Of a DNA stretch of 64,000 nucleotides, positions 21,959 to 28,677 are shown one piece after another. Made by a program: the position numbers and the translations under genes. This DNA comes from Pontibacter vulgaris (GTDB taxonomy: Bacteria; Bacteroidota; Bacteroidia; Cytophagales; Hymenobacteraceae), in assembly GCF_022758145.1 (NCBI RefSeq), contig NZ_JAJVDH010000003.1:434001-498000 (forward strand), written 5' to 3'. The notes below the pieces were generated by a model. The model worked only from the letters and a program-made list of their open reading frames with translations. It was not told the origin of the DNA and searched no databases. Numbering within the stretch: the stretch's first letter is position 1; each line of letters begins with the position of its first letter.

Positions 21959-23887
21959 ATGGGAAAGATAATAGGTATTGACTTGGGTACAACCAACTCC
22001 TGCGTTGCCGTAATGGAAGGTAACGAGCCGGTGGTTATACCTAACAGCGAAGGCCGCAGAACAACGCCGTCAATCGTTGCGTTTTTGGATGGCGGTAATG
22101 GTGAGCGTAAAGTTGGTGATCCTGCCAAGCGCCAGGCTATCACAAACCCTCAGAACACAATTGCTTCTATCAAGCGCTTTATGGGCCACAGCTACAACGA
22201 GGTTAGCGAAGAAGCAAAGCAGGTATCTTACAAAGTAGTACAGGGTGGCAACAACACCGTACGTGTTGAGATAGGCGACCGCCAGTACACGCCACAGGAA
22301 ATTTCTGCGATGGTGCTTCAGAAAATGAAGGCTACTGCTGAAGATTACTTAGGCACAACGGTAACAGAGGCGGTTATTACCGTACCAGCTTACTTTAACG
22401 ATGCACAGCGCCAGGCTACAAAAGAAGCCGGACAGATTGCAGGCCTTGAAGTAAAGCGTATCATAAACGAGCCAACAGCAGCAGCGCTTGCTTACGGCCT
22501 TGATAAAAAACACAAAGATCAGAAGATCGCGGTATTCGATTTAGGAGGCGGTACTTTCGATATTTCTATACTTGAGCTGGGTGATGGCGTGTTTGAAGTA
22601 CTATCTACGAACGGTGATACACACCTTGGTGGCGACGACTTCGACCAGAAGATCATTAACTGGCTGGCAGAAGAGTTCATCAGCGATGAGAACATCGATC
22701 TTCGCAAAGACCCAATGGCATTACAGCGTCTTAAAGAAGCTGCAGAAAAGGCTAAGATCGAGCTTTCGTCTTCTAACGAAACGGAGATCAACCTGCCATA
22801 CATTATGCCGGTAAACGGTATTCCAAAGCACTTGGTACGCAAACTGACTCGCGCTAAATTTGAGCAGCTTTGCGATGACCTGATCCGCAGATCTATGGAG
22901 CCTTGCAAAAAAGCGCTTCAGGATGCTGGCTTATCTACTTCTGATATTGATGAAGTAATTTTGGTAGGTGGTTCTACTCGTATTCCACGTGTTCAGGAAG
23001 AAGTTGAGAAGTTCTTTGGCAAGAAGCCTTCTAAAGGTGTTAACCCGGATGAGGTGGTAGCAATTGGTGCTGCAATCCAGGGTGGTGTACTGACTGGTGA
23101 GGTAAAAGATGTACTGTTACTTGACGTAACGCCGCTTTCACTGGGTATCGAAACTATGGGTGGTGTAATGACCAAACTGATTGAGTCTAATACAACTATC
23201 CCAACCAAAAAGTCTGAGACTTTCTCTACCGCATCTGATAACCAGCCATCTGTAGAGATCCACGTACTGCAGGGTGAGCGCCCGATGGCACGCGATAACC
23301 GTACGATTGGCAGATTCCACTTAGATGGTATTCCACCAGCACCTCGTGGTGTTCCGCAGATCGAAGTTATTTTCGATATCGATGCTAACGGTATACTTCA
23401 CGTAACTGCTAAGGATAAAGCTACTGGTAAAGAGCAGAAGATCCGTATCGAAGCTTCTTCTGGCCTGACAGAGCAGGAAATTGAGCGTATGCGTAAAGAG
23501 GCGGAAGCCAATGCCGAAGCTGACAAAAAGGCGAAGGAAGAGATCGAGAAGCTGAACGCAGCAGACTCTATGATCTTCCAGACTGAAAAGCAGCTGAAAG
23601 AGTATGGCGATAAACTGTCGGAAGGCAACAAATCTGCTATTGAAGGTGCACTTGGCCAGCTGAAAACAGCACATGGCGCAAAAGACATCGCAGGTATAGA
23701 TGCTGCCATTGAGGCACTGAACAATGCCTGGAGCGCAGCTTCGCAGGAAATGTATGCTGCCCAGGGCGCCCCAGGTGCTGAGGCAGGTAACGGCCAGGCT
23801 GGCGGCCCGCAGGGTGGCCCACAAGGCGCATCTGCTGATGGTGGCGTAACCGATGTAGACTACGAAGAAGTAGACGGCAACAAGTAA
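21959..23887 (+). CDS. dnaK: Chaperone Hsp70
   Basis: DnaK is the ATP-dependent Hsp70 chaperone of the cytosol and works with DnaJ and GrpE. The 642 residues give the full family length. The nucleotide domain begins GKIIGIDLGTTNSCVAVMEG, with the phosphate-2 motif VFDLGGGTFDISIL and the adenosine motif ILVGGSTRIPRVQ. The substrate domain follows (about 390-510), then the lid, a Gly/Gln-rich linker, and the terminal VDYEEVDGNK, which matches the conserved EEVD-like end. It is monocistronic here, without grpE or dnaJ. Its 3' end and terminator recur in diverged form at 25546 and 28579, a striking feature. Unlike neighbouring genes it has only two AAGTATA/TATACTT words. Confidence 0.99.
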   Translation: MGKIIGIDLGTTNSCVAVMEGNEPVVIPNSEGRRTTPSIVAFLDGGNGERKVGDPAKRQAITNPQNTIASIKRFMGHSYNEVSEEAKQVSYKVVQGGNNTVRVEIGDRQYTPQEISAMVLQKMKATAEDYLGTTVTEAVITVPAYFNDAQRQATKEAGQIAGLEVKRIINEPTAAALAYGLDKKHKDQKIAVFDLGGGTFDISILELGDGVFEVLSTNGDTHLGGDDFDQKIINWLAEEFISDENIDLRKDPMALQRLKEAAEKAKIELSSSNETEINLPYIMPVNGIPKHLVRKLTRAKFEQLCDDLIRRSMEPCKKALQDAGLSTSDIDEVILVGGSTRIPRVQEEVEKFFGKKPSKGVNPDEVVAIGAAIQGGVLTGEVKDVLLLDVTPLSLGIETMGGVMTKLIESNTTIPTKKSETFSTASDNQPSVEIHVLQGERPMARDNRTIGRFHLDGIPPAPRGVPQIEVIFDIDANGILHVTAKDKATGKEQKIRIEASSGLTEQEIERMRKEAEANAEADKKAKEEIEKLNAADSMIFQTEKQLKEYGDKLSEGNKSAIEGALGQLKTAHGAKDIAGIDAAIEALNNAWSAASQEMYAAQGAPGAEAGNGQAGGPQGGPQGASADGGVTDVDYEEVDGNK

Positions 23888-23910
23888 TTAACGATAAATT
23901 TAAATATAAA

Positions 23911-23943
23911 GTCCCCTGTCGAGTTTCGGCAGGGGACTTTTTT
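23911..23943 (+). terminator. dnaK terminator
   Basis: The hairpin GTCCCCTG...CAGGGGAC with a T7 tail starts 23 bases after the dnaK stop codon. The same structure, with sequence changes, is found in the two downstream dnaK-tail copies. Confidence 0.85.
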
Positions 23944-23978
23944 GTTTTGGAGTAGTATAGCAGAATATAAAATTCACT

Positions 23979-26852: not shown

Positions 26853-26862
26853 GATGATGTTA

Positions 26863-28278
26863 TTAAAATTGGAAATAGATAAATTCGTTTGCTGTTCCGC
26901 TGTTAACAGCTAGCATAAACAGCATAACAGCATAAAGGGCAACTTCAGTTTTTCTTATAACAAAAGCCACAGTAAGCTTTTGTGCATATAGGTAATGCAG
27001 GTGGTATAAAACTACTGGCAGCGAGTACAGGATAGTGTACCCCATAATAGCGTAACCAAGTGAGCCCGGCGCAATGTGCCAGTTTGTGAAAAGCGCTTTG
27101 AAATAGAGCACGGCATAAGAAAAGTCAGGTAGTTTAAAGAGCAACCAGGCCAAGGTAACAAAGCTGAAAACAAGTACCATTTGTACAAAACGGATCAGCC
27201 CCGTATCTGGAAGTTTTATTTTACTACCCAGGAAACGTTCCAATGCAAGTGCTACCCCATGAAAAGTACCCCAAACGGCATAGCTCCAGGCTGCTCCGTG
27301 CCACAAACCACCCAGGAACATCACAATCATAAGGTTCAGGTAAGTACGGAAAGCGCCTTTCCGGTTGCCTCCGAGCGGCACATAGAGGTACTCTTTCAAA
27401 AAACTTGATAGCGAAATGTGCCACCTGCGCCAGAACTCCGAAAAAGACCGGGAAATGTACGGAAAATTAAAGTTATCCATGAGCCTGTACCCAAATAAGC
27501 CTGCTACGCCAAGCGCGATAAGCGAGTAACCGGCAAAGTCTGCAAAGATCTGCATTGAATATCCCAGCAACATTACAATCAGTGTTATGGAAGCATAGCG
27601 TTCAAAGTATGGATAGGCAATCCAGAATGTCTGGTCTTTGAGGTTATCTGCAACTACCATTTTCAGGAAATAACCAACTACAAGGCACCTGAAACAGTAT
27701 TCCCAGTTAATATCTTTCAAAGTTTTTACTGCAATCTGGGGTATAAAATCGTAGGCTTTAACAATTGGCCCTGCTACCAGCTGCGGAAAAAAAGAAATAA
27801 AGAAGATTGTGTTTCTGAAATGTTCCATAAAGCCTTTCGGAACTATACTTTCCCTTTTATCTTCTTTGTAAGTATCGAGCACCAAGCTTATACCCTGAAA
27901 GGTATAAAAAGAGATACCCACCGGCAATGGTATTGTGAGTAGGAAATTACTTAGATTATCATTGGAGCCGCTGAATACTGTAGAGGCAAATAAAGGGCTA
28001 TACTTAAAAAAAGCCAATATACCCAGGTTAGCAATAACACCTGCTGCTGCAATTAGCCTGCGTTTGTTTTGGGCTCCCCATTGTATAAAATAACTGGTTA
28101 CAGCATTTATAACAATAGAGACTAAGAGCAACAGGAGCAGTATCGGCTGGCTTGTCGCATAAAAGCAAAAGCTTGCTAGTATAAGTATAACTACCTGATA
28201 CCTTTTAAGTGCTGTTGCATAGTACAAAAGCATCGTAACAAACACAAGAAAAACGAAATTAAGGCTATTGAAAAGCAT
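26863..28278 (-). CDS. MBOAT-family membrane O-acyltransferase
   Basis: A membrane-bound O-acyltransferase of about 471 residues, AlgI/DltB-like. It passes acyl groups from the cytoplasm to an extracytoplasmic acceptor. It has about 11 hydrophobic helices. The conserved core reads WRRWHISLSSFLKEYLYVPL (the AlgI W-R-R-W-H motif), then GGNRKG, and GGLWHGAAWSYAVWG, with the catalytic histidine in LWHG. ATG at 28278 (MLFNSLNFVFL) is preferred to 28338, because the family starts MLFNS. The SGNH partner follows immediately. It is likely to acetylate a surface polysaccharide, possibly the product of the locus starting at 28.9 kb. Confidence 0.9.
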   Translation of the reverse strand: MLFNSLNFVFLVFVTMLLYYATALKRYQVVILILASFCFYATSQPILLLLLLVSIVINAVTSYFIQWGAQNKRRLIAAAGVIANLGILAFFKYSPLFASTVFSGSNDNLSNFLLTIPLPVGISFYTFQGISLVLDTYKEDKRESIVPKGFMEHFRNTIFFISFFPQLVAGPIVKAYDFIPQIAVKTLKDINWEYCFRCLVVGYFLKMVVADNLKDQTFWIAYPYFERYASITLIVMLLGYSMQIFADFAGYSLIALGVAGLFGYRLMDNFNFPYISRSFSEFWRRWHISLSSFLKEYLYVPLGGNRKGAFRTYLNLMIVMFLGGLWHGAAWSYAVWGTFHGVALALERFLGSKIKLPDTGLIRFVQMVLVFSFVTLAWLLFKLPDFSYAVLYFKALFTNWHIAPGSLGYAIMGYTILYSLPVVLYHLHYLYAQKLTVAFVIRKTEVALYAVMLFMLAVNSGTANEFIYFQF

Positions 28279-28578
28279 ATTTACATAAATTTGAAGCCCA
28301 GTAATTAGAAGCAATCCGACATCACAAGCCCATAACATAGTACTTTACATAGCTATATTATGAATTTAATATGCAATTCAACGAATATAATTATAAATAG
28401 TTATATTATAATTTAAAAAATTAATATTTAATTCACGCTAATTATTTTGCAAAATTTAAACTTAATATAAACCAATTATGAAATTTATGGGTTAAATATA
28501 GTTATTGGACTTAATAATTCATTAAAGAGCGAATGAAGGTATTTTATTCTAAGAAGCAATAATTGTTACCTTCCTAAG
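28279..28578. other. AT-rich non-coding region
   Basis: Three hundred strongly AT-rich bases lie between the MBOAT start and the third dnaK-tail copy. Nothing is recognised beyond probable promoter sequence for the reverse-strand MBOAT/SGNH unit. Confidence 0.5.
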
Positions 28579-28677
28579 GGCGTAACTGATGTAAAATACG
28601 AAGAAGTAGACAGCAACAAGTAATTAACGATAGATTTGAATATAAAAAACCCCTGTCGAGTTTCGGTGGGGGTTCTT
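28579..28677 (+). repeat. Third, more diverged copy of the dnaK 3' end plus terminator
   Basis: About 100 bases match dnaK positions from about 23842 onward. The last ~15 codons are in frame (GVTDVKYEEVDSNK then TAA), with non-synonymous changes Asp to Lys and Gly to Ser. The bases after the stop, TTAACGATA, match the copy at dnaK better than the second copy does. The terminator stem is kept as ACCCC/GGGGT, but its T tail is degraded. There is no upstream dnaK sequence. Confidence 0.85.

What the first reader, a model, noticed from the sequence alone, without database searches (positions are those of the whole stretch)
23814..28677. The dnaK 3' end plus terminator occurs three times, separated by gene cassettes
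Seen: the last ~130 bases of dnaK and its terminator (23814-23943) recur at 25546-25676 and, shorter, at 28579-28677, always in the dnaK direction and without the rest of the gene. Copy 2 keeps the reading frame and differs in its coding part by four bases, three synonymous. Its terminator shows a compensated G-C to A-T pair. That is what the tail of a diverged but functional dnaK would look like, not simple decay. Between the copies lie a MORN protein gene (cassette 1) and an MBOAT/SGNH operon (cassette 2), and the polysaccharide locus follows copy 3. Inference: mobile or recombining cassettes have repeatedly entered at the dnaK tail, each bringing a replacement tail, as islands do at tRNA or tmRNA 3' ends. 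No integrase is visible, so they would be moved in trans or by homologous recombination.
Basis: partly seen in the sequence, partly recalled or inferred. Interest (0 to 1): 0.88.

Follow-up and report, generated by a model that had tools for sequence, protein, structure and literature searches.

The report
Displaced dnaK tails mark stacked insertions
In this Pontibacter genome the end of the chaperone gene dnaK lies three times in a row with unrelated genes in between, which looks like a fossil record of foreign genes that recombined in at dnaK and pushed the old gene ends downstream.

Summary
The last 74 coding bases of dnaK plus its terminator recur at 25546-25678 (89%); the last 45, decayed, recur at 28579-28677; the own-genome search found no other place. 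None of 49 other Pontibacter genomes showed the same array. One (G027) has a second tail 2.7 kb downstream, behind different genes. Copy 2 differs from copy 1 as a working gene end would: 1 change at about 51 nonsynonymous sites against 13 at about 73 synonymous plus untranslated sites (p=0.0075). Copy 3 shows no such constraint. It stands 369 bp before a wzm-type gene, where five relatives have dnaK itself (287-501 bp). The dnaK-purE interval varies from 0.8 to 16.4 kb, and G004 has a cassette-1 homologue directly after dnaK. Best reading: donor DNA carrying a related dnaK 3' end plus cargo recombined at the tail, each event displacing and truncating the old tail. This is the logic of Rhs C-terminal displacement, on a housekeeping gene. 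tRNA-style integration is not supported: truncation points differ, the cassettes hold no integrase, and phage, plasmid and viral collections gave no tail. Donors, order and crossover type are inferred. The tails are short, so the statistics are modest.

The parts
21959..23887 (+). dnaK (642 aa), complete
   Evidence: ORF list; whole-genome tail search
23814..23946 (+). Tail copy 1: last 74 bases of dnaK with stop, 3' UTR and terminator (hairpin 23908-23940)
23979..25244 (-). Cassette 1: MORN_2-like protein gene (421 aa; below Pfam's cut-off), convergent with dnaK; its only relatives of at least 40% identity in 49 congeners lie in their dnaK loci (G004, G033 twice)
25546..25678 (+). Tail copy 2: displaced dnaK 3' end, reading frame and terminator intact (hairpin 25640-25672)
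25857..26852 (-). Cassette 2a: 331-aa protein with SGNH-type motifs (by eye); no match in the 49 other congeners
26863..28338 (-). Cassette 2b: MBOAT O-acyltransferase (491 aa; DltB-like, below that model's cut-off)
28579..28677 (+). Tail copy 3: decayed dnaK 3' end, probably the oldest; hairpin weakened, T-run lost
28992..31145 (+). wzm/wzt-type polysaccharide ABC transporter genes, start of the polysaccharide locus, 369 bp after the copy-3 stop
39514..40206 (+). OMP beta-barrel gene (family F8), a family whose members are the first gene after dnaK in 16 of 50 congeners including the window genome
40269..41957 (-). purE and purK: far end of the variable dnaK-purE interval

Best explanation
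The array is a displacement record. The interval between dnaK and purE in Pontibacter is a gene-turnover hotspot. DNA from a related cell carrying a homologous dnaK 3' end followed by its own downstream gene(s) recombines with the resident dnaK tail. One crossover is homologous, inside the tail. The other junction is either illegitimate (homology-facilitated illegitimate recombination) or is supplied by a circular donor (single crossover). The resident dnaK thereby gains the incoming tail and terminator, the cargo follows, and the old tail, cut at its 5' side, is pushed downstream. On this reading copy 3 is the oldest end, from when dnaK stood next to the wzm/wzt polysaccharide locus. Copy 2 became dnaK's end when the MBOAT cassette entered, and copy 1 when the MORN cassette entered. 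Displaced tails then decay. Shown: repeats, variable interval, divergence patterns, a donor-like arrangement, a second case in another species. Inferred: horizontal origin of the tails, order of events, crossover type.
For: Tail found at three places only in the own genome. Copies 1 and 2 differ at 1 of about 51 nonsynonymous sites but at 3 of about 15 synonymous and 10 of 58 UTR sites (Fisher p=0.0075), so both probably spent most of their separation as working dnaK ends, which implies separate cells; copy 3 shows no constraint (3 of 33 nonsynonymous, 1 of 9 synonymous, 6 of 48 UTR; p=0.74), as expected if displaced earlier. Copy 3 lies 369 bp before wzm; five congeners have dnaK directly before wzm at 287-501 bp. 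G004 has dnaK followed directly by a convergent MORN homologue (42%) and then purE, a donor-like arrangement. G027 has a truncated second tail 2.7 kb downstream behind two convergent genes of other families; it is nearer to G031's dnaK (87%; 2 differences in the last 57 coding bases, both synonymous) than to G027's own tail (82%). The last 90 bases of the window's dnaK are 96.8% identical to G006's although the bodies are 85.8%: the largest residual of 1225 congener pairs, z=3.2 uncorrected. The dnaK stop-to-purE distance ranges from 843 to 16,381 bp in the 27 of 50 genomes where purE was seen. Cassettes have low GC, 0.36 and 0.39, against 0.46 upstream of dnaK.
Against: The tails are 90-133 bases, so the statistics are weak: the selection test rests on 14 changes, and coding against UTR alone gives p=0.085. 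Copies 2 and 3 differ by 1 synonymous and 5 nonsynonymous bases in 42. The three window tails group together (support 0.907), so donors would have to be unsampled close relatives; in-situ duplication is not excluded. No congener has the 331-aa cassette-2 protein (0 of 49; MBOAT was not searched genus-wide), so no donor is known for cassette 2. The DNA upstream of wzm does not align well with that of the five dnaK-wzm relatives: one 44-base stretch, E 8e-5, near the terminator of G023. G027's own and displaced tails share part of their UTR and their relation is unresolved (support 0.208). Different nearest neighbours for tail and body of dnaK are common (same neighbour in only 10 of 50), so the G006 signal is suggestive only; the max-chi tests gave p 0.002 to 0.16.
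Confidence: 0.6

Rival explanations
1. In-situ origin: the dnaK tail was duplicated within this lineage by tandem duplication or rearrangement while genes moved in between, with no donor dnaK tail; divergence came later.
For: The three copies are each other's closest relatives (support 0.907); G027's two tails share part of their UTR.
Against: A displaced non-coding copy should gain nonsynonymous and synonymous changes alike; copy 2 does not (p=0.0075). The genes between the copies are of low GC and rare or absent in the genus, and in 21500-30500 no other sizeable repeat accompanies the tail.
Confidence: 0.2
2. Site-specific integration: a tyrosine recombinase uses the dnaK 3' end as attachment site, as islands do at tRNA or rlmH 3' ends, and each element restores the gene end.
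For: Same orientation each time, dnaK remains intact, cargo differs.
Against: Left boundaries of the displaced copies differ (-74, -45, about -85 in G027), though decay could have shortened two of them; the cassettes (about 1.6 and 2.9 kb) hold no recognised integrase gene; no tail found in phages, plasmids or IMG/VR. An integrase elsewhere in the genome was not searched for.
Confidence: 0.1
3. The copies are selected terminators: dnaK's tail was copied because its strong hairpin also terminates the convergent cassette genes.
For: Hairpins of copies 1 and 2 are intact (-25.1 and -25.5 kcal/mol) and fold on the other strand at -20.8 and -25.7; the copy-2 hairpin (25640-25672) lies 185 bp past the end of the 331-aa gene at 25857.
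Against: The terminator scan finds these two hairpins on the + strand only. The idea does not explain the coding bases and stop codon in each copy, the decayed hairpin of copy 3, or G027's copy without a hairpin.
Confidence: 0.06
4. A second full-length dnaK once existed downstream and was deleted except for its tail.
For: Would also give a tail that diverged under selection.
Against: The exact C-terminal motif was found at one place in 146 of 204 family genomes, at two in G000 and G027, and in none of the other 56; blast of 25400-25720 and 28340-28760 against 59 dnaK genes found no dnaK bases beyond the tails.
Confidence: 0.04

Closest known systems
Rhs C-terminal displacement (Jackson et al. 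2009, PMC2935791; passages seen)
   Same: An intact gene is followed by displaced 3' pieces of the same gene with homologous parts of variable length, low-GC DNA and decaying copies; sequential insertion by homologous recombination, with a circular intermediate proposed there.
   Different: In Rhs the tips are alternative ends of the protein. Here the tails encode nearly the same DnaK C-terminus and the cargo is separate genes; the anchor is a housekeeping chaperone.
T6SS effector/immunity arrays by sequential displacement (Kirchberger et al. 2017, PMC5361080; passages seen)
   Same: New module enters next to a conserved anchor, old genes are shifted back and a 3' end of a displaced gene can remain; homology-facilitated illegitimate recombination proposed there.
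   Different: There the retained genes are immunity genes with presumed selective value; here the displaced part is a tail and terminator.
[quoted passage not shown] 2017, PMC5635113; passages seen)
   Same: Variable interval between core genes (dnaK and purE), no mobile-element gene seen in the two cassettes.
   Different: Their model is double recombination in the flanks; here a duplicate gene end is left behind.
Islands at tRNA/tmRNA or rlmH (SCC) 3' ends (recalled, no call)
   Same: Gene 3' end duplicated at insertion, gene stays intact.
   Different: No integrase seen in the cassettes, no fixed boundary position.

Membership tests
Rhs-type C-terminal displacement locus | Displaced 3' pieces of the upstream gene, same orientation, variable length | tested here: met
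Rhs-type C-terminal displacement locus | Anchor gene is rhs, or another polymorphic toxin, with variable tips | tested here: not met
   Anchor is dnaK; the tails encode nearly the same C-terminus
Gene-turnover hotspot between core genes without mobile elements | Large variation in content between conserved flanks | tested here: met
   dnaK stop to purE 843-16,381 bp in the 27 of 50 genomes where purE was within the fetched stretch
Gene-turnover hotspot between core genes without mobile elements | Excess homologous recombination in the flanking core gene | tested here: inconclusive
   Window-G006 tail is the top residual of 1225 pairs (z=3.2); max-chi p 0.002 to 0.16 over seven comparators; no comparison with other core genes
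Site-specific island at a gene 3' end | Integrase in the element | tested here: not met
   Three ORFs of at least 80 aa in the cassettes, none with an integrase match
Site-specific island at a gene 3' end | Constant boundary position | tested here: not met
   Displaced copies begin at -74, -45 and about -85; copy 3 and G027's copy may have lost bases by decay
Homology-facilitated illegitimate recombination product | One homologous and one short-homology junction, shown by parental sequences | not testable with these tools
   Donor DNA not available

The most novel reading that the evidence does not exclude
Ordinary housekeeping genes next to hotspots can act as Rhs-like recombination anchors: each capture of foreign cargo leaves a dated gene-end fossil, so the order, number and donor lineages of acquisitions can be read from the chain of displaced dnaK tails.
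Probability: 0.45. Interest if true: 0.6.

Novelty: new variant of a known kind. Interest (0 to 1): 0.45.

Why it matters
How hotspots without integrases gain genes is not settled; the model proposed for them, double recombination in the flanking core genes (PMC5635113, passages), would by itself leave no duplicate. Displaced ends of a core gene would be direct footprints of one-sided capture events, countable across genomes and datable by their decay. They would also extend a mechanism proposed for toxin loci to a housekeeping gene beside a surface-polysaccharide locus.

Tried and rejected
Rejected: chance; a general terminator repeat carrying dnaK codons. Terminator and UTR look-alikes without codons do exist after F8 or F3 genes in G001, G031, G033, G038, G044 and G046, and weaker hairpin matches lie elsewhere in genomes; I do not count them as tails. 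Tail tree for G027: its two tails are not resolved (support 0.208). Search for the window's UTR pattern in genome contigs: 0 matches, the window's own and near genomes possibly left out. Search for the 331-aa cassette-2 protein: 0 of 49 other congeners; in the large protein collection only four others at E<=0.001, of 24-29% identity. MBOAT was not searched genus-wide. The 455-aa G027 cassette protein has only 33-34% partial matches in 2 other congeners, on contigs other than those of their dnaK.

Literature: homology-facilitated illegitimate recombination, 49 papers, 10 listed; 'dnaK' with 'O-antigen', 'gene cluster' and 'downstream of dnaK', 0; 'Pontibacter', 'dnaK', 'genomic island', 0; hotspots, 7, 6 listed; islands at protein genes, 81, 8 listed, none on dnaK by title; 'dnaK', 'purE', 'hypervariable', 37, 8 listed, uninformative because 'purE' also matches the word pure. 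I found nothing in print on this locus in those searches; I do not claim more. A ComEC-family protein is present in the own genome; the same family rings in 10 of 14 control genomes, so this is no evidence of competence.

Cautions on counts: fetched stretches reach about 12-13 kb past dnaK in most congeners (15.6 kb in G027) but only 1.1 kb in G034, 4.2 kb in G024 and 8.7 kb in G003, so architecture counts are lower bounds. The script kept ORFs of at least 80 aa, and for the first-gene and purE/wzm counts also dropped ORFs under 150 aa in families of three or fewer. In one search I read copy 3 one base out of frame; that count was discarded and redone. The start of G027's second tail is -85 by the best blast match, -90 against its own tail, and by eye weak similarity runs further.
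Full report
WHAT IS THERE. dnaK (21959-23887, +) is intact. Its 3' end with terminator (23814-23946) recurs at 25546-25678 with 89% identity and at 28579-28677 with 88% over 94 bases, all in the same direction. A search of the own genome (4.19 Mb, 36 contigs) with the 130-base tail found these three places and the reverse strand of one hairpin at E<=0.001, nothing else. 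Between copies 1 and 2 is a MORN_2-like gene (below Pfam's cut-off); between copies 2 and 3 are a 331-aa protein without family match (its SGNH-like motifs are read by eye) and an MBOAT protein resembling DltB. All three cassette genes point towards dnaK. A wzm/wzt-type polysaccharide locus follows copy 3.

THE LOCUS IN RELATIVES. The genus is taken to be Pontibacter: congener G004's dnaK contig has the same length (174,323) as a record named 'Uncultured Pontibacter sp. isolate 905', which holds the same MORN homologue. I fetched the dnaK flank of the 49 other congeners held and of nine other family members. The interval from dnaK to purE/purK (named by Pfam on the window's genes) is variable: in the 27 of 50 genomes where purE lies within the fetched stretch, the distance from the dnaK stop ranges from 843 bp to 16,381 bp, the window being the longest. 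An OMP beta-barrel family (F8) gives the first gene after dnaK in 16 of 50 and an unnamed family (F3) in 17 of 50; 16 of 50 carry wzm and wzt homologues in the fetched stretch. In the window the F8 gene lies just before purE, 15.6 kb from dnaK.

RECURRENCE. Blast of all 59 tails against all downstream stretches found extra coding tails only in the window and in G027. A whole-genome exact search for the C-terminal codon motif matched 148 of 204 family genomes, with two matches only in G000 and G027. In an evenly drawn sample of 390 order genomes a shorter motif gave two matches in G000, G027, G011, G087 and G420. For G000 and G027 one search places the pair in the dnaK locus; in G087 and G420 the two lie on different contigs; in G011 they are on opposite strands and the second place is not among the matches listed. 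G027's second tail lies 2.7 kb downstream of its dnaK, behind two convergent genes (a DUF6705 protein and a 455-aa protein without family) of other families than the window's cassettes. It has lost its hairpin and carries an in-frame stop upstream; its last 57 coding bases differ from G031's dnaK at two synonymous positions. So two Pontibacter lineages show it with different cargo. Exact patterns miss decayed copies, so two is a lower bound.

DIVERGENCE PATTERN. Copies 1 and 2 differ at 1 of about 51 nonsynonymous sites, 3 of about 15 synonymous sites and 10 of 58 sites after the stop; nonsynonymous against the rest, Fisher p=0.0075; coding against UTR alone, p=0.085. The stem changes keep the hairpin. 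Both copies therefore probably evolved for most of their separation as working dnaK ends. Since relatives show one dnaK end each apart from G027, that points to two cells and a transfer. Copy 3 shows no such constraint (3 of 33 nonsynonymous, 1 of 9 synonymous, 6 of 48 UTR; p=0.74) and has a weakened hairpin, as expected of an older displaced end. The three window tails form one group among all congener tails (support 0.907), so any donors were close relatives not in the collection.

POSITIONAL EVIDENCE. Copy 3's stop is 369 bp before the wzm start. In five congeners (G019, G023, G025, G030, G037) dnaK itself stands directly before wzm, at 287-501 bp. G030 also has the closest wzm and wzt proteins among the loci compared (69% and 75%). 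The intergenic DNA, however, does not align beyond a 44-base stretch in one of the five. For cassette 1, the only homologues of at least 40% identity in 49 congeners are in the dnaK loci of G033 (two) and G004. In G004 the MORN gene lies convergent directly after dnaK (109 bp, against 91 bp in the window by the same counting), followed by purE: the arrangement a donor would need. The 331-aa protein of cassette 2 has no match in 49 congeners and only distant ones elsewhere; MBOAT was not searched in this way.

MOSAIC SIGNAL. Over its body the window's dnaK is closest to G046 (90%), but its last 90 bases are 96.8% identical to G006, whose body is 85.8% identical; of 1225 congener pairs this is the largest excess of tail over body identity (z=3.2, uncorrected for having looked at all pairs). 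Max-chi tests against seven comparators gave p from 0.002 to 0.16. Tail and body share the nearest neighbour in only 10 of 50 genomes, so this is supporting, not decisive. The window's UTR does not resemble G006's.

MECHANISM. One-sided homologous recombination at the dnaK tail explains why dnaK stays intact, why the displaced copies lack the rest of the gene, why their left ends differ (-74, -45, about -85), why the orientation is constant, and why the farthest copy is the most decayed. Whether the second junction is illegitimate or comes from a circular donor cannot be told without parental sequences. Papers propose both: a circle with single crossover for Rhs (PMC2935791, passages), and homology-facilitated illegitimate recombination for T6SS arrays (PMC5361080, passages). 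Site-specific integration is disfavoured by the variable boundaries, the small cassettes without a recognised integrase, and the absence of the tail in phage, plasmid and IMG/VR searches; the rest of the genome was not searched for integrases. Selection for terminators may help copy 2 persist (its hairpin folds on both strands, but the scan calls it on the + strand only) and does not explain the codons.

VERDICT. Observation confirmed; interpretation partly supported. This is best described as a housekeeping-gene version of C-terminal displacement in a gene-turnover hotspot: a new variant of a known kind, of moderate interest, with a clear test (strains lacking one or both cassettes).

Noticed in passing
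Loci L065 (G031), L072 (G038), L067 (G033), L080 (G046), L035 (G001), 0.8-1.6 kb after dnaK: The dnaK 3' UTR/terminator, or a look-alike hairpin, without codons recurs after a following gene (F8 or F3); in G031 with the same bases ahead of the hairpin and in G038 with similar bases after it. Possibly older or smaller versions of the same process.
   Followed up: partly
window 23888-40268: The dnaK-purE interval varies in content across the genus; wzm/wzt homologues were seen after dnaK in 16 of 50 Pontibacter genomes.
   Followed up: partly
window 28339-28578: Very AT-rich stretch (19.6% GC) between the MBOAT start and copy 3, possibly the promoter region and the illegitimate junction.
   Followed up: no
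window 33492-34475 and 35103-36116: Two ORFs of the glycosyltransferase cluster with very similar N-termini, apparently a duplication inside the polysaccharide locus.
   Followed up: no
window 21661-21700: Perfect inverted repeat with 20-bp arms and no bases between them, upstream of dnaK, perhaps the terminator of the preceding gene.
   Followed up: no
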